Below are positions 1 through 32,031 of a stretch of 64,000 nucleotides of DNA, piece by piece. Each line of letters starts with the position of its first letter. Within the stretch, counting starts at the first letter, position 1. The notes beneath the pieces are model-generated. The model was not told the origin of the DNA. It did not search any database and was given only the letters and a program-made list of their open reading frames with translations. The translations under genes and the position numbers were made by a program. Source of the DNA: Streptomyces sp. ALI-76-A (lineage in GTDB: Bacteria; Actinomycetota; Actinomycetes; Streptomycetales; Streptomycetaceae); the NCBI RefSeq assembly GCF_030287445.1, contig NZ_JASVWB010000001.1, positions 1-64,000 on the forward strand. Reading direction: 5' to 3'.

Positions 1-17
1 CTATACGTATATCTATT

Positions 18-4185: not shown

Positions 4186-4281
4186 GACTATTTCCCTATA
4201 GGGCCCTTCCCACGCTCTTTAGGATCGAACCTGCCGCGCCTCCCCCCACTGCACCGAAGGCGCCGCCTACGGCGCACTGAG

Positions 4282-11855: not shown

Positions 11856-12128
11856 ATGTCGCTCGCTGATCTCACTCTCGACCTGTGGCGGACCTTCGAC
11901 GAGGTCACCGCCCGGCGGACCGCCCAGAATGTCGCTGACCACGTGGGCGGCCGGCTCTCACGCGTCGAGGCCACCGAATACCTCGGCGCCCCGCTGTACC
12001 GTGTCCGGGTCGTGCGGGACGGGCAGGAGTTCGCCCTGATACCTGGAGGCCGGGTGTCCCTGGGCTTCGACCTCGACACCTGGTGCTGCTACTCCTGCTG
12101 GACAAACGGCAGCAGGAGTAGCACCTGA
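11856..12128 (+). CDS. Hypothetical protein (90 aa)
   Basis: Starting MSLADLTLDLWRTFDEVTA, it reads as a small alpha/beta protein (YLGAPLYRVRVVRDGQEFAL, then RVSLGFDLDTW). The last residues (CCYSCWTNGSRSST) are encoded by the inverted repeat at 12089-12121, so the native end may have been replaced. Function unknown. Confidence 0.5.
   Translation: MSLADLTLDLWRTFDEVTARRTAQNVADHVGGRLSRVEATEYLGAPLYRVRVVRDGQEFALIPGGRVSLGFDLDTWCCYSCWTNGSRSST
12089..12121. repeat. Perfect 12-bp inverted repeat
   Basis: CTACTCCTGCTG (12089-12100) and CAGCAGGAGTAG (12110-12121) are separated by 9 bases. There is no following T-run, so it is not a classical Rho-independent terminator, although Streptomyces can terminate without one. 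It separates the 90-aa gene from a gene remnant. Confidence 0.7.
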
Positions 12129-12763
12129 GTTCGCTCGCGCAGGTGCCGCTGGCCATGTGGCTGTGGTGGGACGGCTACGTACCCACCCGGCAGGCGCAGC
12201 GGGCGTGGACGACGTGGGTCGGGCGCGGCAGGCGCAACCAGGAGGTGGCCCGCGAGGGCGCCCTCGGCCTGCTGGAACAGGTCGGACATCAGCTGGCCAC
12301 GCCGACCGCGCGGGCCCGGTTCGTGCGGATCATCACCTAGCTAGGCAACGGCAAGGCCCTGACGGTGCGCGGGCGAGCCGAGCTGCTGGACACCGTGCGG
12401 GACGTGATGGAACCGGACACCGTCTTCGCCGCCAGTGGTCTCGTCCGCGCGCTCGGCCCCGCGCAGACACCGATGACCGTCGAGGCCGTCGTACCCCACA
12501 TCGAGGCCCTGTCGGCTGCGCTGGGCCGCACCCTGAACGGGAAGGTGGACGCCCCGCTGCTGGAACGGGCCCGGGCCGTCCACCGTGCCTCCATGGCCGA
12601 CTACCTCGCCGAGCGCGGTGACCTCGCGGCCGAGGCCGGATACCTGGCCGACCTCTTCCGCGAGCCCACTCTCCAGGAGCAGTTCGACCAGGCCGGACGC
12701 CAGCTTCTGCTCGTTCTCGGCATGGAACTGATCCACCGCCGGCCCCAGGCGCACCCGGTGTGA
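12122..12763 (+). pseudogene. Broken gene with an in-frame amber codon
   Basis: One frame reads SSLAQVPLAMWLWWDGYVP to RFVRIIT, then TAG at 12338-12340, then continues in the same frame (LGNGKALTVRGRAELLDTV) for 140 residues to RPQAHPV. It has no start codon upstream because a stop lies at 12119. It looks like the C-terminal ~210 residues of a protein that lost its 5' end at the inverted repeat and then gained a nonsense codon. Family not recognised. Confidence 0.55.
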
Positions 12764-13114
12764 CGGCGGGCTGCGGGGCGGGCCGCCCGGGGCGCGCTGC
12801 TCTCAGACACGCGGCCGCTCGGCCGGATTGCTCAGCCTGTGCGGTGCAGCCGTGGGGGCCGCCGGAAGAGCCGAGGCGGCTGTCGCCGGGAGCCCCCGTC
12901 TTGAGCGGCCTGCGATCAAGACAGGCATCTTGCGTCCGTCGATCAACGTAGTTCGTTTCCTAGGACACGGTTTCCCGTTTCGCGCTAGGCGATGGGGAGT
13001 TGGGCGTAGAAGCGTGGGCCGCTGGCAGTGGTTGCCAGCGGCGCACCCGCTCCAGGCTAGACGGTACTGGCATGTTTCACCCCTTGGACCCGGGGAGCGC
13101 AGTACACGCAAGGC
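12764..13114. other. Intergenic region with a 10-bp hairpin
   Basis: No gene is supported here. GCCGCTGGCA (13018-13027) and TGCCAGCGGC (13033-13042) form a perfect 10-bp stem with a 5-base loop about 70 bases upstream of the next gene, so it could be an operator or a leader hairpin for the downstream trio. Confidence 0.5.
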
Positions 13115-14185
13115 ATGCAGCGGGTCTACCGGCACGCTCTGCGTGAGGGGCGGATCAGCCCGGAGGTGTACCGCGTGCTGTCGGGCACCGTCGGCGCCCA
13201 GGAGATGCACGACCTTCTCGGGGTTCCCGCGCACCGGTTGTGGGCGGCCGCGGTCCATCAGCAGGTGCTGCTGTCCGGACCGGGCGCGAACGCCATGAAC
13301 CGGCTGGTCAAGCAGGAGTTCGGGATGGCCAAGGCCGACCGGCAGCGCATCAGCGAGCGGCTGGCGCCGATGACGCTGTCTGCCTATCGCAGCCAGGAAG
13401 GCATCGAGCAGGCGCTGCGGGCCTTCGGCAATGGCGGCACGATCACCGACCGCGTGTGGAAGCAGCCGTGGAACCTGACCCGAGGCAGCGAGGTGTCCGA
13501 GGTCCTCGACGACATCCTCGACCGTGCCCTGGCCGGCGAGGCTAGCGCGGTGGCGGAGCTGACCGTGCTCGGCGGGACCGCCGCGATCCTCGATGGCTAC
13601 ATCACCCGGGACCGCGGCTCGAAGGAGGGCATCGACCGCGGCAGTGGCAGTGCGCCTTTCCGGACGACGCCGGTGAACCTGCTCGACGTGCTGTCGAAGA
13701 CCGCTGGCGGGCTGCGGATGCTGCACTCCATCGCCCGTGCCCACGTCGCCGCGGACCCGGCTGTCCTGCCCAAGCAGTTCCACACCCAGGACCGCGAGAT
13801 CGACGGGCAGCTCGTTCGGGACGGCGAGCGCGTGCTCGACAAGGCCGGCGAGCAGGTCATCATCGACTACGAGTGGGACCTCGTCTACGCCGCCGACCCG
13901 GCCAGGGCCCTGGCCACCATCGCCAAAAACAGCCGCGAGCCGCTTGAGACTGAGGCGGAGGACGTGCGCCAGCGCCGACTGCTCGCGAGCGGCGTCGTCT
14001 CCGCGCTCGAGGCCGCGCGAGCGCTCGCCCGCATGCACAAGAGCCGCGGTCCGGGGGTGTTCGGCCACGTCGACACCGTCGACGAGCTGCGCGAGCAGCT
14101 GAGGCAGGCCGAGGAGATCCTCCTGCGCTTCGGGCCGTCCCGGACCTCCTTCCTCCTCGACGAGGACGAGGAGGGCGGAGAGTGA
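13115..14185 (+). CDS. Hypothetical protein (356 aa), first of a coupled trio
   Basis: A mostly helical cytoplasmic protein (RISPEVYRVLSGTVGAQEMH near the N-terminus, a long charged helix RQRRLLASGVVSALEAARAL, and an acidic C-terminus DEDEEGGE). No known motif. Its stop overlaps the next start (GTGA), and that gene overlaps a third in the same way, so the three are translationally coupled. The set resembles accessory genes on actinomycete plasmids, but I cannot name a function. Confidence 0.65.
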   Translation: MQRVYRHALREGRISPEVYRVLSGTVGAQEMHDLLGVPAHRLWAAAVHQQVLLSGPGANAMNRLVKQEFGMAKADRQRISERLAPMTLSAYRSQEGIEQALRAFGNGGTITDRVWKQPWNLTRGSEVSEVLDDILDRALAGEASAVAELTVLGGTAAILDGYITRDRGSKEGIDRGSGSAPFRTTPVNLLDVLSKTAGGLRMLHSIARAHVAADPAVLPKQFHTQDREIDGQLVRDGERVLDKAGEQVIIDYEWDLVYAADPARALATIAKNSREPLETEAEDVRQRRLLASGVVSALEAARALARMHKSRGPGVFGHVDTVDELREQLRQAEEILLRFGPSRTSFLLDEDEEGGE

Positions 14186-14370
14186 GCGCCGGCTTCCTGC
14201 GGCTAAAGGGTGCGGTGGCCGGTGGCCGCACGTCCGGCCGCGACGTTGGGCTGTCGTCGGTATCGGTGGACTCGGCCGGTCCGGTGGCGGGACACCGCCG
14301 GGGCGCGGTGTCCCAGGAACGCCGCTTTGAGTCGCTGCTCGAGGCCCATACAGAGGGGTGGGGCCGGTGA
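14182..14370 (+). CDS. Small basic protein (62 aa), second of the trio
   Basis: The GTG start overlaps the stop of the previous gene by four bases and is preceded by GGAGGGCGGAG, a strong ribosome site. The product is serine-, glycine- and arginine-rich with no membrane span. Its reality rests on the double GTGA coupling rather than on homology. Confidence 0.5.
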   Translation: MSAGFLRLKGAVAGGRTSGRDVGLSSVSVDSAGPVAGHRRGAVSQERRFESLLEAHTEGWGR

Positions 14371-14732
14371 GCGCGCCTGTCTCGCAGCAGTCCCGCTTCG
14401 GCGGGATCCGGCCGGCGGCCGTAAGCGTGGTCAGCGGCAGCGCGGTCGTCACGGCCCTGACGATGGCCAACGCCCCCTGGCAAGCCGTGGTTCTGACCGT
14501 GCTGGCCACGCTCGTGGTCTCGCTCGTTCTCGGCCTGGCCAAGATCGTGGTACCCGATGAGTCCGAGCACAAGCGGGACCTGCTGCTCGCCTACTTCCGC
14601 TACCTCGAGCGCCGGGCCAAACATCGCGAGCGCCGGGCTGAACTGCGTAAGCGCCGACGGCAGCAGAGAGAAGGCCTGAATCCGCAGGAGCAGCGCGACC
14701 GGGCCACTGGAGGTGATCGCGCACTTCCGTGA
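14367..14732 (+). CDS. Membrane protein with basic tail (121 aa), third of the trio
   Basis: The GTG start overlaps the preceding stop (GTGA). Two hydrophobic segments (AVSVVSGSAVVTALTMA and AVVLTVLATLVVSLVLGLA) are followed by a long basic, probably coiled cytosolic tail (about 72-107; YLERRAKHRERRAELRKRR). This could anchor the 356-aa partner at the membrane; that is inference from the coupling. Confidence 0.6.
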   Translation: MSAPVSQQSRFGGIRPAAVSVVSGSAVVTALTMANAPWQAVVLTVLATLVVSLVLGLAKIVVPDESEHKRDLLLAYFRYLERRAKHRERRAELRKRRRQQREGLNPQEQRDRATGGDRALP

Positions 14733-14938
14733 TCAGCTGCCGGAGGTCGGCCCGGCTGTCGACTTAGTCGGCCGGGCCACCGCCGCCTGATGCCGGTGGC
14801 CCGGCTTCCGGCTCAAGCACGTCTCGCGTACCAACCGTGTACGGAAGGCGTGCCCCCGCCCGGACACGAGGCGCCTGCGAGGGCGGTCTTCCGCGCGTGG
14901 GCGGGGCTACCAAAGCGTGCTGCCGTACGGACACGTTT

Positions 14939-14969
14939 CCTCTACCTGCGGTAGAGGTGCGCGGTAGAG
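14939..14969 (+). promoter_or_regulatory. Operator of the toxin-antitoxin pair
   Basis: CCTCTACC-TGC-GGTAGAGG (14939-14957) is a perfect 8-bp inverted repeat, and a third half-site CGGTAGAG follows at 14962-14969. It ends 8 bases before the antitoxin ATG. Ribbon-helix-helix antitoxins normally bind such arrays and repress their own operon. Confidence 0.7.
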
Positions 14970-14977
14970 TGAGGAAC

Positions 14978-15253
14978 ATGGCAGCAGACGAGACGAGCAT
15001 CAAGGTGAGCGCGGCCGCGCGGGACCGGCTGGCGCGGTTGGCGGCCGAGCACGGCACGACCATCCGCAGCCTGGTCGAGGAGCTGGCGCAGAGCACGCCG
15101 ACGCAAGCCGAATACGCCGAGCGTGCCGAGTTGGCCCGCGCCGAGCTCACCTCCGCCCTCGGCGGCGCGCCGAGTCCGGAGGCGGAAGCGAAGGCCCGTG
15201 CGCTGCTGGAGCGCCTGGGCGGGGCGCGGCACGGCTCGCAGACGGCCGCGTAG
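14978..15253 (+). CDS. Ribbon-helix-helix antitoxin (91 aa)
   Basis: MAADETSIKVSAAARDRLAR followed by AEHGTTIRSLVEELAQ is the short strand-helix-helix of MetJ/Arc-type (VapB-like) antitoxins. The C-terminal half is alanine- and glutamate-rich and would wrap the toxin. The ATG is chosen over upstream starts because GAGG lies just before it and the operator lies directly upstream. The stop overlaps the toxin start by one base (TAGTG). Confidence 0.82.
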   Translation: MAADETSIKVSAAARDRLARLAAEHGTTIRSLVEELAQSTPTQAEYAERAELARAELTSALGGAPSPEAEAKARALLERLGGARHGSQTAA

Positions 15254-15651
15254 TGGCGGCGATCGCGGTCGTCCTGGACCACACGACCGCCGCCGCGTTG
15301 TACGACCCGAAGGATCCGTTCAACGAGGCGGTCGCCGCGTTCTACGTGCAGGCCTCCGGCGGACTCGGTGATCTGTATGCGCCGGTGCTGTCGCTGACGG
15401 CCGGTGACGCCGAGCGGCCCGGCCTGCTCGGCTACATCAAGGGGCTGCGGTTCATCCGGATCGAGGCGTTCGACACCGACGCCGCGGTCACCGCCACCGA
15501 ACTGCTGCGGTTCGGGCACTCCTGGGCCGCCGTCCACGCCATCCACGCCGCCCGCCCCTCCCCCGCCCACCCCAGTGGACGGTACCTGCTCACCCTCACC
15601 CCCAAGGCATACGCGGGCACCGGCGTTCAAGCCGTCCACCCCGACCAGTAG
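15253..15651 (+). CDS. PIN-like toxin (132 aa)
   Basis: The N-terminal VVLDHTTAAALYDPKD fits strand 1 and the first acidic residue of a PIN domain, and LRFGHSWAAVHAIHAARPS fits the later helical part. Some canonical PIN acidic residues are not obvious, so ribonuclease activity is uncertain. The GTG start overlaps the antitoxin stop by one base, the usual arrangement for a type II pair. The pair lies directly upstream of the kinase gene. Confidence 0.65.
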   Translation: MAAIAVVLDHTTAAALYDPKDPFNEAVAAFYVQASGGLGDLYAPVLSLTAGDAERPGLLGYIKGLRFIRIEAFDTDAAVTATELLRFGHSWAAVHAIHAARPSPAHPSGRYLLTLTPKAYAGTGVQAVHPDQ

Positions 15652-15809
15652 CCGTCCGCCGCCCCGGCGGCAGAAGACGGTCGCCCCCGCCTGCCCCCGC
15701 GATGGGCCTGGTGCTGTTTCGCCGGGAGCGGCACCGCTCGCACAAGGGCGGGTGGGTCTTTTGTTCTGATGTGCCCGGCCGCGAGGCTGAGGTGTTTTCC
15801 GGAGGAACT

Positions 15810-19748: not shown

Positions 19749-20195
19749 TTAGCGCTGTAGTTGGCTACAACACTTTCGATGCCCATTGGTACACCACTTG
19801 CAAACACCTCGATACAGCGTTTTCAAGTCAACATTGCGCAGCGGGCGTTGGGACGGCCTCCGGGTCACGCCGGAGGGGCAGAACGCTGCCGTGCCGCAGC
19901 CGTTGTCCCCATGGCTCCCTCCCGCCTCCATCTGCTCCCCTCGGGGGCGGGCCGGGACAAGCGCCGCCCCGGCGCGACTGCGACAGGCGGGCCGCCGCCG
20001 GGGTCTCGAGGCGTTGCGAGTTGCGGAGCGGCTCCGCCATTGGCCTGCGGATGAGCTTCCGGTTCCGGTCCCGGGTGCGGGCGCGATCCGGTTCGGCTGC
20101 GGCTCGGGAAGTGCTGACACTGAGCCGCAGTCCGATTGTCAGTGGTCGCATTTACTCTCTCATCGGACATATCGGTCATCGGTTGGGAGGTGGTT
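19749..20195. promoter_or_regulatory. Divergent promoter region of the Wadjet operon
   Basis: The gap holds TGTAG-TTGG-CTACA at 19756-19769, seven bases upstream of the minus-strand start, a likely operator for the helix-turn-helix protein. CCTCCGG/CCGGAGG at 19857-19876 forms a second small hairpin. No gene is supported here. Confidence 0.45.
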
Positions 20196-21755
20196 GTGGG
20201 TATCGCGGTTCCGGAGGTCCCCGCAGGCGACAGCGAGACGGACTGGGTGGTGGAGGGCTGGGCCGATGCGGGCATGGCCGCGGGAGATCCAGCACGGGTG
20301 GTGGGCTATGTGCTCAGTCCGCTGCGCGGGCAGTACCTGGCGATCATGGAGGTGCTCGAGCAGTCGGTCGACCATCTGACCCCGGCGGAGGTTCGTGCGG
20401 CGCTCGCCGCAGAAGGGACGGAACTGCCTCTTGCCACGGTGACCACGCGGCTGCGTGCGCTCAGCGACACCTTCCTCGCCGCCTCAGGCCGGCCGGACTC
20501 GGAAGTCGAGCGGTGGCACGAGCTGAACGGTGCCCGCTGGCGCTACAGCGCGACCCCGCGAGGACGACAGATGCAGCGCCTGTGGACACAGCTGGCCAGC
20601 GACGGTCTCGTGCCACGGGAGATCCCCATGGACGGGCTCTCCAGGATCCAACAGGCGCTGGCCGCCATACACGGCGATCAGTCGTCCAACGCCGCTCTGT
20701 CGGAGCTGGCGGGGCAGGTGTTCGTCGAGCACGACCACCTCGACGGGGCTCTGGTGGGCCAGGCGGACATGCTGGCGCAGCTGGCCGACCGCTTCAATCT
20801 GGACCTGCGGGCGACGGGTGAGCTGAAGCAGCTGATCCTGGAGTACGCCACGCATGTGGTGGTCCATCTGGATGCGGCGGTGGTCCGCATCCATGCGGAG
20901 CTTGTCCGGCTCCGGCCGCGGTTCGCCGAGCTCGCGGCAGCGCGGCGCGGTCAGTCTCCGGCGGGGGCGCTGGTGGCGCGCGGGGTGCTGGCGCCGGCTC
21001 GGGGGCTGCGGGCAGCTGACTGGGAGCAGTTGCTGGGGTGGTTCTCGCCCGGGAGCGGCAAGGCGGCGCGGTTCGGGCTGCAGTTGGTGCGGGCGATTCC
21101 GATGCTGCATGCCAATCTGCTGCGGCATCAAAGCGTGGGAGGGCCGGCGACCCTGCGGGCGCGGGCGCTGTCGCTGGCGGTTGCCTGCCAGGATCCGCAC
21201 CACGGGCGGGCGGTGCTGCGCCAGGCGCTGGCGGACAGGCCGTGGACGAAGCTGCATACGGTCGCGGAGGCCGACACGAGTGAGGTGGTGTCGTGGCACG
21301 AGGGTCCTCGGGTGGCGGCGCTGGCGATGCTGCGTGCGACCGGGCAGAGCTCGGCCCGGGGGGCCGTGACGGGGCGCAAGCCGCGCGATGAGAGTGAGGC
21401 GGTGCGGCGGCGTGCGGAGCGCGAGGCCCGGCACGGCGCTGCGGTGGCGGAAGTCCTGGCCGGGGCAGGCCCGTTGTCGGATGCGGCCTGCCGGCTGGCG
21501 CTGAGGGCGGTCATGGCTGCCGCGCGGGCGCTGGAGGACTCGGCGGGGCGCATCGGTCAGGCTGAGGGAGTCGGGTGCACTCTGGTGGCCGCTGCGGGGG
21601 TGGTGGGGCGGGTCGAGGGGGTGCGGTGGTCGGTGCTGGTGCCCGGCCGGAGGGTGCTGTTTCATCCCCCTGTTGCGGTGGCTGCCGGGCGGGTCCCGGC
21701 GGGCCGGCGGGCCGAACCGGCAAAGGTGGCCGTCCTGGTCGAGGCTGCCCGGTGA
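20196..21755 (+). CDS. jetA: Wadjet type II JetA (DUF2397)
   Basis: First gene of a four-gene cassette in the order DUF2397, DUF2398, TIGR02680 SMC-like, DUF2399. The start is the GTG preceded by GGGAGG. Near the N-terminus LSPLRGQYLAIMEVLEQSVD and the winged-helix-like TPAEVRAALAAEGTELPLAT are kleisin-like features of this family. The C-terminal part is alanine/arginine-rich and helical. In Wadjet, JetA is the kleisin bridging the JetC motor and recruiting JetB. About 519 residues, the usual size. The stop overlaps jetB (GTGA). Confidence 0.87.
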   Translation: MGIAVPEVPAGDSETDWVVEGWADAGMAAGDPARVVGYVLSPLRGQYLAIMEVLEQSVDHLTPAEVRAALAAEGTELPLATVTTRLRALSDTFLAASGRPDSEVERWHELNGARWRYSATPRGRQMQRLWTQLASDGLVPREIPMDGLSRIQQALAAIHGDQSSNAALSELAGQVFVEHDHLDGALVGQADMLAQLADRFNLDLRATGELKQLILEYATHVVVHLDAAVVRIHAELVRLRPRFAELAAARRGQSPAGALVARGVLAPARGLRAADWEQLLGWFSPGSGKAARFGLQLVRAIPMLHANLLRHQSVGGPATLRARALSLAVACQDPHHGRAVLRQALADRPWTKLHTVAEADTSEVVSWHEGPRVAALAMLRATGQSSARGAVTGRKPRDESEAVRRRAEREARHGAAVAEVLAGAGPLSDAACRLALRAVMAAARALEDSAGRIGQAEGVGCTLVAAAGVVGRVEGVRWSVLVPGRRVLFHPPVAVAAGRVPAGRRAEPAKVAVLVEAAR

Positions 21756-22993
21756 GCGCGGTGCTCGGCGGCGTGTGCGGCCGACGGCTGGTGGAGGACG
21801 AGCAGGAGGTCGTCGCGGCGCTGGTGCGCCGTCTGCGGGTGCAGACCTGGCTGATCGGCGGGCGGGACGATGAGCTCATCGAAGCGGTGCACCGGCATGC
21901 CGCGGCGGTGCGTGCGGTGCTGGAGGCGCTGGGCTGCATGCTGACGGTCGAGCCGGATCTGGTGCGCGTGCACGTGCCCGTGGAGCCGGTCGGTTTGATG
22001 TCCGGTGGTGACGCCCCGGAGGGGGTGTGGTTCTGGCTGACGGTCGCCGTGCTGGAGGGTCTTCCTCCCAGGGCGCGGCTGGGACAGGTGGTGGGCGCGG
22101 TGCGCTCGGCCGCCGCGGAGGCCGAGATCCCGGTGACGCAGTCGCAGCCCGAGCTGCGTGCGCTGGTCGCCGGGCTGAGGATGCTGTGCGAGCGCGGAGT
22201 GCTGAGTGAACTCGAGGGCCGCGTCGACGATCTGATGGACGGTGCGCAGGATCCACCGGTGCTGCTGAAGATCCACCATGCCCGCCTGCTGCACCTGTTG
22301 CCGCGCAGTGTGCCGCTGGATGACGAGGGGCAGTGGGCCTGTGACCCGGGGCGGGATCCCGAGGGCTGGCTGCGTTCACTGCACCGGCCCGGCGACGAGG
22401 CGGTGCGGGTGGTCGGCATGCTCGCCGACCGGGCGGTCGTCCACGTCTGCGACCTGGACGAGGCGGAGCAGCAGTGGTTCAGCACCCGGCTCGCCCGCGA
22501 AGGGGCCCGCGTGGCCGAGACGTTGGGGCTGCACCTGGAGCACCGGCTGGAAGGCGCCAGCCTGGTGGTGCCCGAAGACATCAGCGACGCCCGGGTGCTG
22601 GGACCGTTCCGCTTTCCCCACCGGCAACAGGGCGGTTCGGGCACCGTCCGGCACGCCACCTTGCTCCTCATCGACTACCTGACCGGCGAAGGCGAGCGGG
22701 GCGGACCGACGGCTCCCGACGAGGGCTGGTGCGGCGCCGCCGCGTCCGCGGTGGTCCGCCGCCTGGGTGAGCTGGCGGTACGGCACACGAGGTGGCGGGG
22801 AGAGTACCGGCAGCGGCCTGAGCAACTGGCCGGTCAGATCCGGACGCTGCTCGAAGGGGCCGATCTGCTGCGTGTGGCCGCGGGCTATGAGGACTGGTGG
22901 TGGCTGTCCCCCGCGGCGGCCCGCTGGACGGTCGTCGCTCACGACGGACAACTGACTGACCCCCTGGACAGTGCAGGAACGGAGACGCGATGA
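21752..22993 (+). CDS. jetB: Wadjet type II JetB (DUF2398)
   Basis: 413 residues starting at a GTG that overlaps the jetA stop. The N-terminal RRLVEDEQEVVAALVRRLRV and later FWLTVAVLEGLPPRARLGQV follow the DUF2398 pattern, with tandem winged-helix-like regions expected of a KITE subunit (WLRSLHRPGDEAVRVVGMLA; ATLLLIDYLTGE). Its role is to bind the kleisin JetA and help load DNA into the SMC-like complex. Its stop overlaps jetC (ATGA), so all four proteins are made in concert. Confidence 0.87.
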   Translation: MSAVLGGVCGRRLVEDEQEVVAALVRRLRVQTWLIGGRDDELIEAVHRHAAAVRAVLEALGCMLTVEPDLVRVHVPVEPVGLMSGGDAPEGVWFWLTVAVLEGLPPRARLGQVVGAVRSAAAEAEIPVTQSQPELRALVAGLRMLCERGVLSELEGRVDDLMDGAQDPPVLLKIHHARLLHLLPRSVPLDDEGQWACDPGRDPEGWLRSLHRPGDEAVRVVGMLADRAVVHVCDLDEAEQQWFSTRLAREGARVAETLGLHLEHRLEGASLVVPEDISDARVLGPFRFPHRQQGGSGTVRHATLLLIDYLTGEGERGGPTAPDEGWCGAAASAVVRRLGELAVRHTRWRGEYRQRPEQLAGQIRTLLEGADLLRVAAGYEDWWWLSPAAARWTVVAHDGQLTDPLDSAGTETR

Positions 22994-25900
22994 ACCGGTT
23001 GAGCATCCCTGCCCGGTGGGCCGGCCGGTGGTGTCTGGCCGGTGCGGGGGTGGAGAACGTCGGGCTGCTCCCCCGGGAGGTTTTCGCTTCTCCCTCGGGC
23101 CGGATCCTGGTGACCGGCCCGAACGGCACCGGCAAGACCACCCTGCTGGAGAAACTGTGCCCTCACCTGCTGGACCCCACCACGGCGGCGCACCTCAGCT
23201 CGGGAAAGAACCGGGGCACCACCCTGGAGTTCCTGATGAGAAGCGGCAGCACGGGACGGCGCAGGGTCGGGTACCTCTGGCTCAGCTTCCGTCCGCCACA
23301 GGCCGGTCCCGAGCATGGTGCCGGTGCCGTGCACTACGGGCTGCGCCTGGACTACGCGCAGGGCACCAGTCCGTCGGTGACGCGGGTGGGATTCATGATG
23401 CCCCTCGTGCCCGGCTCGGACCGCGACGACCTGAGCACGCTCAGCCTCGAGGCGTTCACCCAGTACGTCACCGGTCACGGCGGCACCGTCTTCGAGCGCC
23501 TGGACGACTACGTCGCTGATCTCGCCGAGCGCGTCTTCGGCTGTGCTCCTGCCCGGCTTCAGCAGATCGCCCGTCGTATCAAGAAGGTCCGCAACCCCGG
23601 CCTGCTGAGCGATCTGACACCCGTTCAGGCCGAGCAGGAACTGCACGACGTGCTGCCGCGCGTCAGCCCCGAGGTCCTGCGCGTGACGCGGGAGGCCCTG
23701 GCCGCCGCCGAGGCCACCCGCGCGCGGTACCTGCGGGCGGAAAAGACCTCCGCCCTCCTTGAGGACCTCTCGTCGGCCTGGCTGCACTCCTGTGCTCGCA
23801 CGGTGCTGAGCGCAGCGGAGGACGCCCTGGAACACACTGCGGCGCGCCAGCGCGCCGAGACCGAAGCCGGGGAAGCACAGGCGCACGCCGCGGCATCGGC
23901 GCAGGGGCATGCCGCCCTGGCGGCCCTTGTGGAGGAACTCGACGTGGCGGAGGGGGAGACGGCTTCCCGCGCGCAGGCCCTGGAGCGGGATGCGGCCTCC
24001 AGCGACGTGGCCCGTGCCCGCGAGAGGGCCGATGGGTGCGAAGCGGGGCACCGGCAGGCCGAAGAGCTGCTGGAGGCGCACTGCTCGGCAGCGGCGGGCG
24101 CCTCCGGGCGGCTGGAAGCCGCGGTGCGCGGTGTGCGCGAGGTGGTGGAGGGTGTGGCGCGCGCCTGTGCGGACGCGGGCGTGCCCGGTGTGGTGGCCTC
24201 ACCGGTCAGGATGGAGCGCATCGAGCACGCCCCCGTGACGATCGGTGCGCGCAGCTTCGGCCCGTTCACCGAGATCAGCGCCGAGACCTTTCCGGGCGTG
24301 GTGGAGGAGTCGGTGACGGCACTCACGCAGGCGGAACACCGGCTGCGCCAGCGCGGCGCGAACGCCAAGATGCTCGCGGTGGCCCACCAGGGCGTCGAGG
24401 AATTGCGGCAGGAGGGCAAGGAGGCGCGCGCCCGGTCGGACGCCGCCGCCGCGACTGCGGACAGGGCTATCGCGCGGCACCGCGATGCTCACGATGACGC
24501 GCACGCCAAGGTGACCGCTCTGTCCGAGGCCGTACACGGGTGGGCCGTTGGGGCGCAGGCAGTGGTGCGCGCGCCTTTCTTCGACCTGGCAGCCGTCGCG
24601 GACCAGGCCCGGGCATGGGGACAGGATGGGGAGTTCACCGCAGCCGTCCGTGACGCCGCCGCCCTGGGCAAGCGCGTGAGTACCGGTGCAGCCGCCGCCT
24701 CCAGTCGTGCCCGGCAGCGAGCCGAGCACCACCGGCACCAGGCCACAGCCGCCCGGCAGGCCGCAGCCCAGGCGGCCGAGCAGGCCCGGCTGTGGGGCAG
24801 CGGGAAGCTGCCGGCGCTGCCCGGCCCGGCGTGGCTTCAGACGGCCGACGAGGACGAGTGCTTCGCCGTGGCCGTCGACTGGCGCCCGGGCGCCCTGCCC
24901 GCCGGGCCGGGCCGGAACGCGGCGGAAGCCGCCATGGCCGCCGCCGGCCTGCTCTCCGCACAGCTGTCACCGCAGGGCGTGGCTGGCGACGAGGGCTGGC
25001 TGGTGGGGCCCTTGGGGCCGGAACTCCCCCTGGAGGACAGCCTCGCCTCCCTCCTGACAGTCGTGCCCGGCCACCGGCTGGGCGAGGTGGCCGACGCCGT
25101 CCTGAGGCGCATCGGGTACGCGCCCACCGCCGACGACACGGAGAGCGCCGGCAGGCCGGAACTGCTGATCGGCGCCGACGGTACCTACCGCTGCGGTCCT
25201 CTCGTCGCCCGGCCGCCGCAAGCGGTGCGTGGCAGCACACCGGTGGCCTCGCACATCGGAAGGGAAGCCCGGCGCGCCGCGGCCCAGCGGGAGGCCGCCG
25301 CGGCCCAGCGCGAATGCGACCGCTTCGAGCTGGCGGCAGCCCGGCATGCCCGCACCGCGGCGCGGTTCACGCAGTACGCGGCGCTGCTGGAACAGCTGGC
25401 CGACCAGTTCCCGCACGAGCTGTCCCGGGCCGCGTCGCAGGCCGAGACCGTCCGCGCGCAGTGCGCGGTGTCCGAGCAGGACGCCCGTGCCCACGCGTGC
25501 GAAGAGGACAGGCTGGCCCAGGCGAAGGAAGCGCAGACCCGGCGCGCGCTGGCGCAGTGGCGTGAACAGGCCGCCGCCTACGGGCTGCCCGACAGCCTGT
25601 CCCTGGTGCGCGACGAGGGCGAGGCGTCCGTCCGGCGCGCCGACCTCCTCAGCCGGGCCGTCGAGGAGATGCGTGGCGTCAGCGGCCTGCTCGAAGACGT
25701 GCAGGGGGCGGCGCAGACCGCCGGTGACGCACGCCGCCTTGCGGAACGCAGCAGGCGCACCGTCCTGGACAGTTTCGGACAGCTCAGCGATGCGCGGGCC
25801 ACGCTGGAGGCCTGCCGGCAGCGCAGCGGCATGGACGAACTCACCCTCGTGCAGGAGGCGTCCGCTGCCCGGCAGGCGCACACGGACGTGCGGGAGCGCC

Positions 25901-27159
25901 TGGGAAGGGCCCGCAAAGAACTGGCAGAGGCGAACTCCATTGCGGCTGCGGCACAGCAGGCGCAGGCGGACGCCGCGCGGCGGCTGCAGGAGAGCCGGCC
26001 CCGGGCCCAGGCGTCCGTGGAAGCGGTGCGCCGGTGCCTTTCGCTCGACGGTCTCGCCGAAGCCCTCGCCGGGACGGCACAGGACGGCATGGCGGACCAC
26101 AACGACGCCGGGACCTGGCTCAAGGAACTGCGTGCCCGCCTGCTGGCCGTACCGCAGCCCTCCGCAGGCATCGATGCGTGCGCCGACGCCCTGCGTCATC
26201 ACCTGGCCGCCGCGCCGGACGAGGACTGGCGCCTCGGGCACGGTCCGGCACCGGAGAGAATGCCCACCCACCAACTGTCCCTGGCCGGACGGCGCATGTC
26301 CCCGCACGCAGCCGCCCGGATGGCTGCAGCACACCAGGCAGAAGCGCACCACGCCTACAGCGCGGCGGACGAGAACGCCCTGGAGAACTTCGTCCTCGGC
26401 CGGATCCCCACGGCCATCAGCACCGCCTGGGTCGAACTGCAGGACTGGGCCGAGCAGGTCAACGAGCAGATGAAACTGACCGCCGCATCCTCCGGAGTCG
26501 GCGTGCAGATCGAGCTTGCCCTGCGCCGTGACCTTCCCCCCTCCATCGCCACTATCCACCATCTGACCTGCAAAGTCGGTGACGCCGAGCGCACGCCGGA
26601 GCAGCAGCGCCGCATCGGGCAGGAACTCCTGGCGGTCATGCGGCTCGGCGAAGAAATGCGGGCGGGCGATGCCGGACCCGGCTCCAGACGGGCCGACCGG
26701 CTGGCCGAAGCCATCGACATCCGCACCTGGGTCACAGTCAAGTACATGATCACCCGGCCCGGGACGACGCGGCAGGAACGCTGGGGCGCCCGCGGCGTGA
26801 CCGTATCCAAGGGTGAGAGCCGCCTGATCGTCCTCGCTCCCATGCTCGCCGCTCTGGCCGCCGAGTACCGCGATCTTCCCCCGCACGCGGCGCGCCTGTG
26901 CGCCCTGGACGAAGTCCCCGGCGACGTCGACGACCACGGCCGGGACGGCATCGCCGCCTACCTCGCCACCCTCGACCTGGACCTGATGAGCACCAGCCAC
27001 AACTGGGACGGCTCCCCCGGCGCCTGGGACGGCATCGACATCTTCGAACTCGAGAAAGCCCCCCAGGACACCGTCATCGCCTTCCCCGTCCGCGTCTACA
27101 GCCCCCTGCTCCAGCAGGCCACCGGCCACCTCGACACGTCCCCGGCCGGCACGTCATGA
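22990..27159 (+). CDS. jetC: Wadjet type II JetC, SMC-like ATPase (1389 aa)
   Basis: Walker A VTGPNGTGKTTLLEKL (GPNGTGKTT at 43-51) lies at the N-terminus. Very long alanine/glutamine/arginine-rich coiled coils follow on both sides of a hinge-like region. The C-terminal head carries the signature TVSKGESRLIVLAPML and Walker B ARLCALDEVPGDVD. This is the TIGR02680 family. It would extrude DNA loops using ATP and deliver small circular DNA to JetD for cutting. Both ATPase halves appear complete. Coupled to jetB and jetD by ATGA overlaps. Confidence 0.92.
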   Translation: MNRLSIPARWAGRWCLAGAGVENVGLLPREVFASPSGRILVTGPNGTGKTTLLEKLCPHLLDPTTAAHLSSGKNRGTTLEFLMRSGSTGRRRVGYLWLSFRPPQAGPEHGAGAVHYGLRLDYAQGTSPSVTRVGFMMPLVPGSDRDDLSTLSLEAFTQYVTGHGGTVFERLDDYVADLAERVFGCAPARLQQIARRIKKVRNPGLLSDLTPVQAEQELHDVLPRVSPEVLRVTREALAAAEATRARYLRAEKTSALLEDLSSAWLHSCARTVLSAAEDALEHTAARQRAETEAGEAQAHAAASAQGHAALAALVEELDVAEGETASRAQALERDAASSDVARARERADGCEAGHRQAEELLEAHCSAAAGASGRLEAAVRGVREVVEGVARACADAGVPGVVASPVRMERIEHAPVTIGARSFGPFTEISAETFPGVVEESVTALTQAEHRLRQRGANAKMLAVAHQGVEELRQEGKEARARSDAAAATADRAIARHRDAHDDAHAKVTALSEAVHGWAVGAQAVVRAPFFDLAAVADQARAWGQDGEFTAAVRDAAALGKRVSTGAAAASSRARQRAEHHRHQATAARQAAAQAAEQARLWGSGKLPALPGPAWLQTADEDECFAVAVDWRPGALPAGPGRNAAEAAMAAAGLLSAQLSPQGVAGDEGWLVGPLGPELPLEDSLASLLTVVPGHRLGEVADAVLRRIGYAPTADDTESAGRPELLIGADGTYRCGPLVARPPQAVRGSTPVASHIGREARRAAAQREAAAAQRECDRFELAAARHARTAARFTQYAALLEQLADQFPHELSRAASQAETVRAQCAVSEQDARAHACEEDRLAQAKEAQTRRALAQWREQAAAYGLPDSLSLVRDEGEASVRRADLLSRAVEEMRGVSGLLEDVQGAAQTAGDARRLAERSRRTVLDSFGQLSDARATLEACRQRSGMDELTLVQEASAARQAHTDVRERLGRARKELAEANSIAAAAQQAQADAARRLQESRPRAQASVEAVRRCLSLDGLAEALAGTAQDGMADHNDAGTWLKELRARLLAVPQPSAGIDACADALRHHLAAAPDEDWRLGHGPAPERMPTHQLSLAGRRMSPHAAARMAAAHQAEAHHAYSAADENALENFVLGRIPTAISTAWVELQDWAEQVNEQMKLTAASSGVGVQIELALRRDLPPSIATIHHLTCKVGDAERTPEQQRRIGQELLAVMRLGEEMRAGDAGPGSRRADRLAEAIDIRTWVTVKYMITRPGTTRQERWGARGVTVSKGESRLIVLAPMLAALAAEYRDLPPHAARLCALDEVPGDVDDHGRDGIAAYLATLDLDLMSTSHNWDGSPGAWDGIDIFELEKAPQDTVIAFPVRVYSPLLQQATGHLDTSPAGTS

Positions 27160-28550
27160 ACCCCACGGACCGCGGCCCAGCCGACTGCCCCGAGCAGCTC
27201 TGCCACGACGGGGCATGCCGCAGCGCCGATCTGACCGCCCTGCTCTGCCCCGACGCGCGGTGGCTGTGGGACCAGGTCGCCCGGCGGGCCGACCAGCGCG
27301 GGGACGCCGCCATGGACAGAGGCACCATCACGATCACCACCCCGCACACGCCCGCGCAACGCGCCGCCGTGATCGGTCTGCTTACCCCGCGGCCGCTGCC
27401 CGCCGGCCGCACACGGCGCATCGACCTGGAGCGGCTCACCCAGGCTCTGCAGCGTCGCGGACCGCACCTGACGCCGGGCGCGGTCGCCGCTCACGCACTC
27501 GGCAGACCCCTGGCCCACCGCGCCGCCGACAAGGCACGGCTCACCGCCCGCCTCACCACCCTGCAGCACCTGCGCAGCCGCCTGGCGCGCGCCCTGCCCC
27601 CCACCGCGCCGGTGCGGCCGGACGACACCGGCTGGGACGGCCTGCGCCGCCGCGGCAGCCTCGCCCGCCTCCTGCAGCACCCCCACCCGGAACAACTGCT
27701 GGCCGCCGCCTTCGCCGTCCTGCAGCACCTGCCCGCCTCGGCACGCGCAGACCGGCGCCGCCTGGCCCACACCGCCACCGGCAACCCCCACGCTCTGGAC
27801 GCCGGAACCGAACTGGCGGCACTCGTCCTCGCCGAAGCCGCCACCGCCCGAGCCGACGCCGGGGCCAGCACATCAGTCCGGGAGGCCTGGGACCGGCTCG
27901 GCGTCGACCTCGACACCCTCACCGGCGGACTGCTCACCCTGGGCGTCCATCCCGCCGGCTGGCACATCCCCCCGGGCCAGCCCGGCATCCTGATCCCGTG
28001 GATGCTGCACCGAGCCACCTGGCCCACACCCCACCGCAGCGAGGAACGGTGGGTCTTCCTCACCGAGAACCCCTCAGTCGCCGCCGCGGCCCTGGACGGC
28101 GACCCAAGCGACGTACGGCTGCTGTGCACGGTGGGGACCCCTTCGCGTACGGAACTGGACGCCGTGGCGCGCCTGGCGGCGACAGGGTGGCGCATCGCCG
28201 TGCGCGCCGACTTCGACTGTGCCGGCCTCGCCCTCGTACGGGCCGTCATCGACGCAGTCCCCGACGCCGAGGTGTGGCGCATGACAGCCGCCGACTACAC
28301 CACGAGCCTGCACCCGGCGCCGTTCGACGCGGGCCTGCTGGATACGGACCGGCTGGGCGAGACACCCTGGGACCCCTCACTCGGCGCCGTCATGCGCGCC
28401 CACGGCCGGCCCGCCTACGAAGAAGCCCTCATCGACCACCTCCTTGCGGACCTGCGACAAGGCCGCCCTCCCGGCAGCGCGCCAGCCCGCAGCTGCCCGG
28501 TCAACGCTCAGATGCCCCTGAGTAACGGCCGTACGGCAAGCAGTGCCTGA
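27156..28550 (+). CDS. jetD: Wadjet type II JetD nuclease (DUF2399, TOPRIM-like)
   Basis: 464 residues from an ATG overlapping the jetC stop. The C-terminal third holds the TOPRIM-like core: catalytic glutamate in WVFLTENPSV, then RIAVRADFDCAGLALVRAVI with the DxD pair, and WRMTAADY. Upstream lies the helical arm typical of the family (LERLTQALQRRGPHLTPGAV). JetD cuts DNA trapped by the JetABC motor. The expected acidic residues are present, so the nuclease looks intact. This closes the operon. Confidence 0.9.
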   Translation: MNPTDRGPADCPEQLCHDGACRSADLTALLCPDARWLWDQVARRADQRGDAAMDRGTITITTPHTPAQRAAVIGLLTPRPLPAGRTRRIDLERLTQALQRRGPHLTPGAVAAHALGRPLAHRAADKARLTARLTTLQHLRSRLARALPPTAPVRPDDTGWDGLRRRGSLARLLQHPHPEQLLAAAFAVLQHLPASARADRRRLAHTATGNPHALDAGTELAALVLAEAATARADAGASTSVREAWDRLGVDLDTLTGGLLTLGVHPAGWHIPPGQPGILIPWMLHRATWPTPHRSEERWVFLTENPSVAAAALDGDPSDVRLLCTVGTPSRTELDAVARLAATGWRIAVRADFDCAGLALVRAVIDAVPDAEVWRMTAADYTTSLHPAPFDAGLLDTDRLGETPWDPSLGAVMRAHGRPAYEEALIDHLLADLRQGRPPGSAPARSCPVNAQMPLSNGRTASSA

Positions 28551-28820
28551 GGGCGGGGACCGGATCTTTCCCCCGCACGATCAGTCCATGAGCACGCACG
28601 CGGGCCTGGGCCGATGGCCAACTGCCCCGATACGCACGGAACTCATCCATGGCGTACCGCTGTTCGCCGGTGACTTCGACGAGACGCCGCCACGCAGCAC
28701 ACCTACCAGGGCCGCCGCGTCCCGCTGAGCCGAGGGCCACCCGGAGGTCCAACCTGCCAGCACCAGACCACCACGCTCGCTGCTTGACCGGTGACCGCAA
28801 GCACCGGATGTCGGCTTGGG

Positions 28821-29552
28821 CTAAGCCGAACCGGCAAGGCTGTGCAGGCGCCGCAGCAGGGTGCGGCACTTCTCGGCGGCGTCATAGGAGCCACCCAAGC
28901 GCTGGTTGCGGTACTGCAGGCGGTCAGCCGACCACAGTCCTCTGGCCATCGCGGCCGGTCCCATGGCGTCCTCCCAGCGGGCCTGCCCCAGCCATGCCCG
29001 CACCGGTGAGACCTCCTCATGATGGCGCAGCAGTTCCCGAGCAAGGACGCCGCGGTCGAAGCGAGCGTTGTAGGCGACGCAGCGCCGCCCTGCCAGGACA
29101 CCGGTCAGCTCCGGGAGCAGGTCGGCAAAACGGGGGGCGCGGGCAACGTGTGAGGGGGTGATGCCATGCAGTTCGCTGGCCGTCGCCGTGATGGGCTCGC
29201 ACGGGTTGAGCAGCTCGTTCACCACCGTGCGGCCCGTGCCGTCCATCACGGCGATCTGTAACGCCCACGCCTGTTGGCCCAGACCGGAGGTCTGGACATC
29301 GATCACCAGCAGGGCCGGATCGGCCAGCACCGCGCGCGCCCAGCGCGCCGCCTGCTCTCGCTGATGGGACCAGGAAGACGGTCTGCGCAGGACCCGCACC
29401 GCATCGTCCAGACACAGACACTGTTCGGCCGCGGACTGCACGTGCCAGAGGCCGTCGCCGTCCGGACGGGCGTGCAACGTTCCGAGGTACCGCTCGTTCT
29501 CGTAGATGGCCCAGGTGGGCCGCTCTGTGTCGTCGGGCCGCACGAACCGCAC
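28821..29552 (-). CDS. Degenerate DnaQ-like 3'-5' exonuclease-fold protein (243 aa)
   Basis: The C-terminal ~160 residues follow the DnaQ fold: Exo I LLVIDVQTSGLGQQAWALQI, the proline/serine-rich LNPCEPITATASELHGITP, and Exo II CVAYNARFDRGVLA. The Exo I glutamate is replaced by glutamine (DVQ for D-x-E). The usual histidine-aspartate of Exo III is not evident in LGGSYDAAEKC. It therefore probably binds rather than degrades DNA. The N-terminal 85 residues may be a separate domain (TWAIYENERYLGTLHARPDG). Convergent with jetD. Confidence 0.72.
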   Translation of the reverse strand: MRFVRPDDTERPTWAIYENERYLGTLHARPDGDGLWHVQSAAEQCLCLDDAVRVLRRPSSWSHQREQAARWARAVLADPALLVIDVQTSGLGQQAWALQIAVMDGTGRTVVNELLNPCEPITATASELHGITPSHVARAPRFADLLPELTGVLAGRRCVAYNARFDRGVLARELLRHHEEVSPVRAWLGQARWEDAMGPAAMARGLWSADRLQYRNQRLGGSYDAAEKCRTLLRRLHSLAGSA

Positions 29553-29786
29553 AGGCAGGCCATCAACCCGCCGACTGAAAGCATCTCCCCACTCGCCCGC
29601 GAACCCGGCGCAGGCCTGGCCCCACCGCCCGCCTCAAAAGAGGCGATGGACAGCCTTCCGGCAGGATTCTGCGTGCTCCATTCACTGATCATGGAACGCC
29701 TCACGCCACCCGCCGTCCGCGCCCGCACGACACGCCGGGAGGACTCATCCCGCAAGCGCACACAGCCCGGCGCGGACCCACGGGCG

Positions 29787-31450
29787 CTACACGAGGACGG
29801 CCGGGACGGCGTCGTCGGTACTCCAGTCGCCGTCGAAGAGTGCGGCCACCAGGCGGACATGTTCGTCAGGGAGCTGGCCGGCGCGGTGCTTGGTGCGGGC
29901 TTTGGCGAGCCAGGCGCCGATCTTGACCGTGTCGCCGTCGACGCGGATCGTCTCGCGGGCGGCGGGAGCACGGCCTTCGCGGTGGAGGAAGAGCTCCAGG
30001 AGCTGCACGGTCTGTTCGAAGGTGCGGCGAGTGCGGCGGGTGGGGGCGAGCGGGTTGCGCTCCGGGGTCAGGCCGAGGGAGGTCATCAGCTCCTGCTGGC
30101 CGGAGTGCAGGGTGTGCCAGGTGGAGAGTTGGCGGTGCAGCCAAGAGCCGATCTTCACACCGCGTAGGAGGGTGTCGTGGGTGAGTGCGGCCGGGTCGGC
30201 TCCTTCGGCGAGATGGCGGCGCAGGAGGTGGTATTTGCGGTGCCAGTCTGCGCCGTGGGGCAGGCGCCAGTCGTGGGCGAGGGCGGTCAGGGTATCTGCG
30301 CGGGCCTGATGGAGCTGGTTCTTGGCGGCGAGGTGGCGTTGTTCTGCGAGCCAGGCGCCGACGGGGGTGGTGGCGGGTGCGGCGAGGTGGCTGTGGGTGC
30401 GCAGGTAGTCGGCGGCGGCGGACAGGCGGGCGCGCCAGGCGGCGTCGTGCTTGTCCCAGATCATGTTCAGTGCGTCGAGTTCGGCGATCCAGTCCGGTTC
30501 GAGGCGGCCGGCGGAGTGGGCGTCGCGCATGGTGGTGATGAAGGTGCCCAGGGCGTAGCCGGTGGGGTCGGTGTAGTCGGTGGGAACGTCGAGGTGGCCG
30601 TGCTGGTCGCGGTAGGACTGGGCGGCGGCGAGCCCGAGGCGGCGGGAGCGGGAGACGGCCGGGTCGCGGGGGTCGAAGGAGGCCAGGTCCATCGCGCGGG
30701 CGATGCGTTCGGGGTGGACGGTGAAGTCGAAGTGCCAGCGGCGTTCGATGACGTCGCTGGTCTCCCTGGGGAGGCGGTTGGCCTTGTCGGGGAGGCGTTC
30801 GAGGATGCGGTGGTCGTGGCTGGCCAGCGCGCAGGCGATGGCCCAGACGGGTTCGTAGGCGGTACTGAGGATGTTGTCGGGTTGGGCGCCGGGCGGGATG
30901 TAGACGGGGACGATCAGTGAGGCGGTCTTGCCGGAGACGTCAAGGCGCAGGGCGTGGCCGAGGGCCTGGACGCAGCGGATGACGCTGCGGGTGGGGTCGG
31001 CGAAGACGATGGCATCCACGCTGGGGATGTCGACGCCTTCGGCGATCAGGCGGGAGTTGGCGAGGATCGCGCAGTCGGCGGCGGCGAAGGCGGCGAAGGT
31101 GCCAGCGCGCTGGGCGGGGGTGTGCTCGCCGTGGGCGAAGAACAGCTCGGGGGTGATGTCCGGGACGAGGCCGGGGTCGGTCCTGGCCAGCAGGCGCAGG
31201 GTGTGGGGCAGTTCGCGGGCGAAGAGGCGGGCGCCGGAGACGAGGTTGAAGTAGACGAGGACCTTCTTCAGCCCGTGTTCGGTCATGGCGCGCAGCACGG
31301 ACAGGTGCAGGGCGGTGGTGCGCAGCGCGCTGTCCTGCTTGCCGTCCCCGGCGGGGGTGCTGCTCGGGGAGGGCAGGTTGAGGCGGTGGCGCAGGTCGGT
31401 GTCGGTGAGGGTGGGCACCACGATGCGGTAGTCCGCAGCGCGCGAGCGGT
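29787..31450 (-). pseudogene. Telomere-linked helicase, C-terminal two-thirds (ttrA-like)
   Basis: Homology begins at RAADYRIVVPTLTDTDLR, directly against the internal telomere stub, so the first RecA-like domain is missing. The second domain is present: KKVLVYFNLVSGARLFAREL, then LANSRLIAEGVDIP and a motif VI reading RCVQALGHALR, where the usual arginine before ALR is a histidine. Several helicase-associated repeats follow (YLRTHSHLAAPATTPVGAWL; VDGDTVKIGAWLAKARTK). It reads away from the junction, as at a right-hand telomere. The product would lack ATPase function. Confidence 0.85.
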
Positions 31451-31505
31451 TACCACATCGCTGCGCGATGTGCAAGCGAACCACCGCGCTGCGCGCGGTG
31501 GTTGC
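31443..31505. other. Internal telomere-like sequence
   Basis: It has the same order as the left end of the window: GAGCGGTTACC, then palindrome ACATCGC-TGC-GCGATGT, the linker GCAAGCGAACC, and palindrome CCACCGCGC-TGC-GCGCGGTGG. Compared with positions 23-83, the spacing and loops are kept and only a few bases change. It lies between two truncated helicase genes that point away from each other. Confidence 0.85.
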
Positions 31506-32031
31506 GCCGGCGCAGCTCACCGAGGTCGACCCGGACTGGGACTGCCCGTGGCCGCTGGACTGGCAGCGGCACTACCGCGTCCTCGCGGACCTGGTCGACG
31601 CCGACGGCAGCCTGCCGGCCATCGCACCCGGGGTCCTGTTCGAGGGCGACGACCTGGGCAAGTGGCTGGAAAGGCAGAAGAATCCGGGCACCTGGGCGCA
31701 GTTGTCGACCGAGCAGCAGGAGCGGCTGACCAAGCTGGGCGTACAGCCCGCTGAGGCCCCGTCTCCCGCCCCGGCGGCCGCGCGTGCGACGAAGGGCCCG
31801 AGCAAGGCGCAGCAGGCGTTCCAGCGGGGTCTGGCAGCCCTCACGCAGTGGGTCGAGCGGGAAGGTGCGGACCGGCCCGTGCCGCGCGGGCACAGCGAAG
31901 AGATCACGGTCGACGGCGAGACGGACCCGGTGAAGCTGGGGGTGTGGCTCTCGAACACCAAGAGCCGGCGGGACAAGCTCACCGCGGAACAACGGGACGC
32001 ACTCGCCGCGCTGGGCATGGACTGGGCGTGA
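31506..32031 (+). pseudogene. Telomere-linked helicase, C-terminal tail
   Basis: The open frame runs out of the telomere stub into LTEVDPDWDCPWPLDWQRHY, then two helicase-associated repeats (GVLFEGDDLGKWLERQKNPG and VDGETDPVKLGVWLSNTKSR). These are the C-terminal repeats of the same helicase family as at 2404 and 29787, but all ATPase motifs are gone. It reads inward, as at a left-hand telomere, mirroring the minus-strand fragment. Confidence 0.8.

What the first reader, a model, noticed from the sequence alone, without database searches (positions are those of the whole stretch)
29787..32031. Internal telomere flanked by two truncated, divergent helicase genes
A 63-bp copy of the telomere palindrome series lies between a minus-strand helicase lacking its N-terminus and a plus-strand helicase tail. 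By mirror symmetry the left fragment looks like the right end of one linear replicon and the right fragment like the left end of another. If so, 1-31.4 kb may be a once-separate small linear element fused end-to-end to a larger replicon, which would explain why the two halves of the window differ in character.
Basis: partly seen in the sequence, partly recalled or inferred. Interest (0 to 1): 0.85.

Follow-up and report, generated by a model that had tools for sequence, protein, structure and literature searches.

The report
Fossil telomere buried inside linear plasmid
A Streptomyces linear plasmid carries, 31 kb inside its present left end, what looks like the scar of its former end: 64 bases of an old telomere with a broken-off DNA arm joined on the outside, which suggests that such plasmids can lengthen by capturing arms on their tips.

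Summary
Window 31444-31507 matches nucleotides 7-70 of the S. globisporus SGLP1 telomere at 63 of 64 positions. It lies between a minus-strand helicase fragment (A', 29787-31442) and a plus-strand helicase tail (B', to 32031).

Telomere, then an inward helicase B about 3.2 kb in, is an ordinary linear-replicon end. DNA from 31.46 kb rightwards matches the NBC_00299 plasmid in loosely collinear blocks that start at that plasmid's base 1. So this is probably the replicon's former left end, minus about 3.1 kb.

The left-hand inference fails. Relatives of A point outward and often lie beside tap-tpg, so A' does not mark a right end. 1-31.4 kb is a mosaic with left-arm polarity, broken inside A.

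Best reading: a broken arm was joined onto the old left telomere, leaving it as an internal scar. Similar helicase stumps occur elsewhere; none of the eight examined keeps a telomere. Rivals: assembly or library chimera (no reads were available), or a deletion within one arm with telomeric filler. Composite linear replicons are known, so this is a new variant of a known kind.

The parts
18..217 (+). Present left telomere of the contig (archetypal type)
   Evidence: 91% over 200 nt to the right end of plasmid SLP2
2404..3466 (+). 5' part of a ttrA-like terminal helicase, cut off at 3466
   Evidence: 2327-3466 is 99.6% to C2:1-1140 and to the right end of C4; three plasmid relatives stop at 3466 (H36, H50, H54)
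12086..15757 (.). Block shared with the end region of pNL15-2K-Lin, left-arm polarity
   Evidence: L025 1042-5531, L025 being turned so that the record's right end is at 1
19961..29772 (.). Block shared with the left end region of S. chartreusis NZ_CP108841 (holds a Wadjet type II system and an exonuclease-like gene), left-arm polarity
   Evidence: 95.6% and 93.1% to L073 3035-11573 and 11590-12626
29787..31442 (-). A': helicase A without its first 256 residues; joint at 31442/31443
   Evidence: 88.7% aa to pNL15-2K-Lin A residues 257 to end; similarity of plasmid relatives ends at 31442 in most of the better rows
31443..31443 (.). One base (C) belonging to neither side; preceded by GCGCG
   Evidence: alignments
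31444..31507 (+). Fossil telomere, nt 7-70 of an archetypal telomere, outer end facing A'
   Evidence: 63 of 64 to SGLP1; 51 of 51 (31457-31507) to the end of NZ_CP108040
31454..31472 (+). Palindrome II, 8-bp perfect stem with TGC loop
   Evidence: sequence, DNA fold
31479..31503 (+). Palindrome III, 11-bp perfect stem with TGC loop
   Evidence: sequence, DNA fold
31504..32031 (+). B': tail of the inward terminal helicase B (residue 707 to end); GCGC overlap with the telomere at 31504-31507
   Evidence: 85.4% nt to S. venezuelae B (L024); 84.6% aa

Best explanation
31444-31507 is the former left telomere of this linear plasmid. A DNA arm (now 1-31,443), broken inside helicase gene A, was joined by end joining almost at the terminal nucleotide of that telomere. 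The old end thereby became internal and the plasmid took over the arm's telomere at position 18. Behind the old telomere about 3.1 kb (subterminal DNA and the first 706 codons of helicase B) was lost at a GCGC overlap, before, during or after the joining. Shown: identity and polarity of the telomere, both truncations, the joint sequences, the partly collinear backbone. Inferred: the order of events, end joining as the mechanism, and that the arm came from another replicon or from a copy of another arm.
For: Telomere identity 63 of 64, from nt 7 of the terminus. Its polarity matches B's: 24 of 36 telomere-class places in 22 other genomes have B on the same contig in this polarity, and the best 60 of 327 plasmid records with B all read inward, 53 starting within 3.1 kb of the end. 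25 of 26 telomere hits whose contig length was looked up lie within 28 nt of a contig end. NBC_00299 plasmid: telomere 51 of 51 nt at base 1, B at 3.3 kb, blocks onwards to the C1/C3 joint. The genome's own plasmid C5 has B and then, in the same order inward, blocks matching 61.5-65.0 kb. A and the blocks left of it have left-arm polarity. The missing N-terminal part of A is found nowhere else in the genome above 36% identity.
Against: No reads: a chimera cannot be excluded. A start at telomere nt 7 is also typical of assembled record ends (rows). A and B can share an arm: S. althioticus and G175. The NBC_00299 match is thin between C1 32 and 72 kb, has one inverted block and some out-of-order small blocks, and NBC_00299 also matches the left segment at 37-230 (81.8%) and 4463-6018 (73.4%). 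Eight comparable helicase stumps have no telomere, and the composite was seen in no other of 392 genomes.
Confidence: 0.7

Rival explanations
1. Assembly or library chimera. The true plasmid end is at about 31,444, and the contig was falsely joined to a 31.4-kb piece of another molecule.
For: Assembled telomeres often lack the first nucleotides, as here (rows). Fold-back joins centred on telomeres occur in public records (L071, L072) and in G094:C71. This assembly lacks the outer 2.3 kb of both chromosome ends. The composite is unique among the genomes searched.
Against: There are no Ns in the window and the joint is not a mirror (no inverted repeat around it in C1). The missing part of A is not on another contig. 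The second unusual joint, telomere to mid-B, lies 64 nt away and would still need a real 3.1-kb deletion.
Confidence: 0.14
2. Deletion within one arm with telomeric filler. A and B lay on the same arm; the DNA between them was deleted and a 64-nt piece of telomere was copied in.
For: S. althioticus has A, the first 361 residues of tap and B from residue 324 together at one end. G175 has A and a 70% B on the same arm, about 16.6 kb apart, in this order and polarity.
Against: Filler need not have B's polarity nor begin within 6 nt of the terminus. NBC_00299 carries the same telomere at the start of a partly matching backbone. S. althioticus is not the closest relative of A' (S. nigrescens 89.6%, pNL15-2K-Lin 89.0%, S. 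althioticus 88.7%) nor of B' (S. venezuelae 85.4%, S. althioticus 84.1%).
Confidence: 0.1
3. One reading: 1-31.4 kb was a small linear replicon whose right end was fused to the left end of a larger one.
For: Telomeres lie at position 18 and at the joint, with a helicase fragment on each side.
Against: A points outward in 21 of 23 rows, so A' does not mark a right end. Only one telomere is at the joint and it has B's polarity. No tap or tpg match in C1. No record covers 80% of window 1-25000.
Confidence: 0.06

Closest known systems
SLP2 of S. lividans as a composite replicon (Huang et al. 2003; seen only as citations and in passages of PMC8743542 and PMC3572947)
   Same: A linear plasmid with an arm of other origin: per PMC3572947, 15.4 kb at the right end of SLP2 is shared with the chromosome ends. 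Here 2327-3466 is 99.6% to the chromosome-end contigs. PMC8743542 cites this paper for 'pseudo-telomeres'.
   Different: I found no intact internal copy of this telomere class in SLP2. Here the old telomere is kept within 6 nt of its terminus. What the 2003 paper says about its pseudo-telomere I could not read.
Chromosomal arm replacement and fusion of chromosome ends in Streptomyces (PMC5869714, passages; Wenner 2003 seen only as a citation there)
   Same: A broken arm is repaired with another arm, by homologous or illegitimate recombination.
   Different: In the cases described in those passages the broken arm is lost or the chromosome becomes circular; here the arm sits on top of a retained telomere and the contig keeps a telomere at its left tip.
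Telomere exchange between Streptomyces replicons (PMC7205883, passages)
   Same: Ends move between chromosomes and linear plasmids.
   Different: Exchange replaces the end; here the old end is still present inside.
Telomere fusion in Borrelia (mentioned in a passage of PMC7205883)
   Same: A telomere becomes internal at a replicon joint.
   Different: There the passage proposes reversal of telomere resolution. Streptomyces ends are capped by a protein, and only one of the two joined ends here is a telomere.

Membership tests
functional archetypal Streptomyces telomere | palindromes II and III with three-base loops | tested here: met
   perfect stems with TGC loops
functional archetypal Streptomyces telomere | complete 13-nt palindrome I at the tip | tested here: not met
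   nt 1-6 absent or replaced, G13 changed to T
functional archetypal Streptomyces telomere | further palindromes IV-VI behind palindrome III (six in all, per PMC7205883) | tested here: not met
   telomere similarity stops at 31507, where B begins
functional archetypal Streptomyces telomere | lies at the end of a replicon and carries a terminal protein | tested here: not met
   position is internal to C1; protein attachment not testable
TtrA-type terminal helicase (B') | helicase domains plus HA repeats, reading inward near an end | tested here: not met
   only HA repeats remain; polarity is inward, intact B has DEAD/ResIII and Helicase_C
composite linear replicon (SLP2-like) | arm of different origin joined to a plasmid backbone | tested here: met
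   left blocks and backbone have different best relatives, and 2327-3466 is chromosome-like
composite linear replicon (SLP2-like) | continuous molecule across the joint | not testable with these tools
   no sequencing reads available
telomere-to-telomere (end-to-end) fusion | remnants of both telomeres at the joint | tested here: not met
   one telomere only; the other side is mid-gene sequence of A

The most novel reading that the evidence does not exclude
Streptomyces linear replicons lengthen outward in steps: a broken arm is captured on or just behind an existing end, and each former end stays as a 'growth ring', a C-terminal stump of the terminal helicase, rarely with its telomere. The window would be the rare ring that kept the telomere, showing that a protein-capped telomere can be joined to a broken end in the cell. 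With its stems intact the buried telomere might even be re-exposed and reused.
Probability: 0.3. Interest if true: 0.72.

Novelty: new variant of a known kind. Interest (0 to 1): 0.52.

Why it matters
If the joint is real, it records in place how a linear bacterial replicon gained a new end. Arm exchange in Streptomyces is known mostly from products in which the old end is gone. Here the old telomere survives to within 6 nt of its tip, so the joining reaction can be read from sequence. It would mean that a protein-capped end can be joined to a broken end, and it suggests a simple search (helicase stumps and telomere remnants at internal sites) to count such events across the genus.

Tried and rejected
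Mirror-symmetry reading of the left fragment: rejected, because A-side relatives point outward (21 of 23 rows, counted; exceptions H5 and H23). These 23 are the A-side rows among the 30 listed of 270 records. Several are near-identical strains, rows H14-H22 include matches of only 64-68%, and not every record end is a proven telomere.

S. albus record that ends inside B (L021): looked like a free 'telomere + B stump' end, but its end is B coding sequence without telomere.

S. phaeoluteigriseus record with an internal telomere at 10501 (L026): not a mirror. Transposon genes lie at both record ends, so a circular closure by the assembler is possible; not used as support.

Other internal telomere hits: S. 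cavourensis L071, S. californicus L072 and G094:C71 are fold-backs. In the 60 listed rows (of 105 records, best place each) three lie more than 1 kb from an end: L026, L071, L072 (counted by eye).

Full-length B more than 3.1 kb from the end (7 of the 60 listed rows): five were fetched (H236, H241, H247, H250, H263). None has a telomere beside B. H236 is a circular record, so its distance to an 'end' means little.

An internal telomere inside SLP2: none found intact. Exact scan of genome contigs for a 43-base piece of the joint: 0 stretches.

Literature: searches listed no paper whose title or shown abstract describes an intact internal telomere in Streptomyces; the library lacks most subscription papers. 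Papers seen: PMC8743542 (passages, and part 1 of section 14), PMC7205883, PMC5869714, PMC3572947 (passages); all others as listings only.

Not done: structure predictions, protein homologue searches, RNA models, trees, tests of selection on the fragments.

Full report
What is there. The window is the left 64 kb of contig C1 (99,182 bp) in a 9.69-Mb genome of five contigs. Its relatives are Streptomyces. At 31444-31507 it holds 64 nt matching nt 7-70 of the SGLP1 telomere at 63 positions. The best match in 20 shuffles of the window was 33-37 of 64. Palindromes II and III are perfect and differ from the contig's own left telomere by paired changes, so the copy belongs to another telomere lineage and has not visibly decayed.

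Three modules. In 392 genomes of the genus (drawn from a larger group; 94 with a match at 1e-10, G000 included) pieces of the joint region occur as separate modules. The A module stops at 31442 or a few bases before, in one row one base later. The telomere module is mostly 31439-31507, with a few rows running up to 14 bases further. The B module starts between 31491 and 31512. A match across all three is found only in the window's own genome. Plasmid rows and a longer query in 26 genomes show similar limits. The A joint reads GCGCG, one extra C, then telomere nt 7; the B joint has a GCGC overlap.

The right side is a former left end. Of the 327 plasmid records with B, the 60 best were listed: all 60 read inward from the nearest end and 53 start within 3.1 kb of it. 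In one search there are 36 telomere-class places in 22 of the 25 other genomes, which I had chosen mostly for a telomere match. 24 have B on the same contig in the same polarity; 12 do not (G186 twice, G017, G025 three times, G157, G227 twice, G166 twice, G034). Over 26 measured ends the gap from telomere to the B stretch is 2,414-7,093 bp, median 3,245 (three of these ends come, and one end of G328 was left out). In the window the gap is zero, so about 3.1 kb is missing. Contig lengths were looked up for 26 contigs with a telomere hit; in 25 the hit lies within 28 nt of a contig end. The exception, G094:C71, is a fold-back.

The backbone. Plasmid NZ_CP108040 (NBC_00299) matches the fossil telomere at its bases 1-51 (51 of 51) and B' at 3.3 kb. 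Further blocks lie at 41, 42, 54, 74, 75, 82, 84 and 91 kb against C1 at 72, 73, 79, 82, 86, 89, 90 and 97 kb, and the match continues into C3. The block at 79 kb is inverted, some small blocks are out of order, and between C1 32 and 72 kb only a repeated element matches. NBC_00299 also matches the left segment at 37-230 (81.8%) and 4463-6018 (73.4%, transposase region). In the genome's own plasmid C5, B is followed inward by blocks matching 61.5-62.5 and 63.4-65.0 kb. C1 and C3 are probably one replicon of about 400 kb: two plasmids carry the two ends next to each other in this order (NBC_00299 and S. coeruleorubidus). C3 ends in another sequence class; all ten listed matches of its tip (of 84 records) lie at plasmid ends. 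S. canus NZ_CP107990 has the layout that the backbone may have had before: this telomere and B on the left, the other class on the right.

The left side is a broken left arm. A lies divergent to a gene pair of the size and order of tap and tpg in pNL15-2K-Lin, S. nigrescens, S. anthocyanicus and G177; in NBC_01230 the pair is adjacent but points the same way as A. Only parts of tap remain beside A in S. althioticus and G389, and neither gene was found near A in NBC_01450 or S. microflavus. The names tap and tpg rest on order, HTH domains and the length of about 185 aa given in PMC3572947. A points outward in 21 of 23 A-side plasmid rows, at both chromosome ends of G175 and G088, at one end of G408, and in G034. 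The blocks at 12.1-15.8 kb and 20.0-29.8 kb have their nearest end on the left in pNL15-2K-Lin, S. chartreusis and A144. The outermost part is chromosome-like: 2327-3466 is 99.6% to both chromosome-end contigs. C1 has no tap or tpg match; the six tpg matches lie on C3, C4 and C5.

Mechanism. The simplest account is end joining of a broken arm to the tip of the old left telomere. Repair of arm breaks by arm replacement and illegitimate recombination is described for S. ambofaciens (PMC5869714, passages). That the telomere was joined as an end rather than copied as filler is inferred from its polarity, its nearly complete outer limit and the backbone match. The order of the joining and the 3.1-kb deletion is unknown.

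Other stumps. N-truncated B, or a B-like helicase, with other DNA outside is found in A144 (from residue 173), S. althioticus (324, joined to tap after residue 361), S. chartreusis (B-like, 36% identity, from 289), G170 (173), G118 (545 and 633), G166 (635) and G091 (527). None of these eight stumps has a telomere beside it in the fetched stretches. In G170, G118, G166 and G091 a full-length B (in G091 in two frames) lies further out on the same contig. This suggests repeated outward growth, but truncated copies can also arise by duplication and loss, and I did not test ancestry.

Against. The copy's start at nt 7 is also what many assembled record ends look like (rows). Fold-back joins at telomeres occur in public records. 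The chromosome ends of this assembly are incomplete. I had no reads. S. althioticus and G175 show that A and B can share an arm. For these reasons I hold the best reading at 0.7.

Verdict. The feature is real in the sequence. It is a new variant of the known composite linear replicon, of moderate interest.

Noticed in passing
window 20136-28550: Complete Wadjet type II set (JetA2, JetB2, JetC2, JetD2 models) on a linear replicon, 95.6% to S. chartreusis NZ_CP108841. From recall, Wadjet acts on circular plasmids, which would spare its linear carrier.
   Followed up: partly
window 3466-3647 and 4281-4462: 182-bp direct repeat, 99.5% identical. The first copy starts where ttrA similarity ends (3466), the second ends where a Mu-type transposase block begins (about 4459).
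   Followed up: no
window 2327; left end of C2 and right end of C4: Both chromosome-end contigs stop at the base equivalent to window 2327, so the outer 2.3 kb of the chromosome is absent and C1 holds the only copy of such sequence found. A collapsed repeat in the assembly is possible.
   Followed up: partly
window 1-17: Seventeen A+T-rich bases precede the left telomere; their origin is unknown, possibly sequencing or assembly residue.
   Followed up: no
window 33575-35350: Minus-strand methionyl-tRNA synthetase-like gene on the plasmid.
   Followed up: no
window 15702-18092: 796-aa ORF with AbiJ_NTD3 and protein kinase domains, resembling several anti-phage defence models.
   Followed up: no
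L107 37935 and L116 14291: Helicase B begins at the same residue (173) in two different replicons, S. sp. A144 and G170. This is either shared ancestry or a preferred break point.
   Followed up: no
L071, L072, L075: Mirror-image fold-backs centred near a telomere in two public plasmid records (S. cavourensis, S. californicus) and in G094:C71, probably assembly errors.
   Followed up: yes
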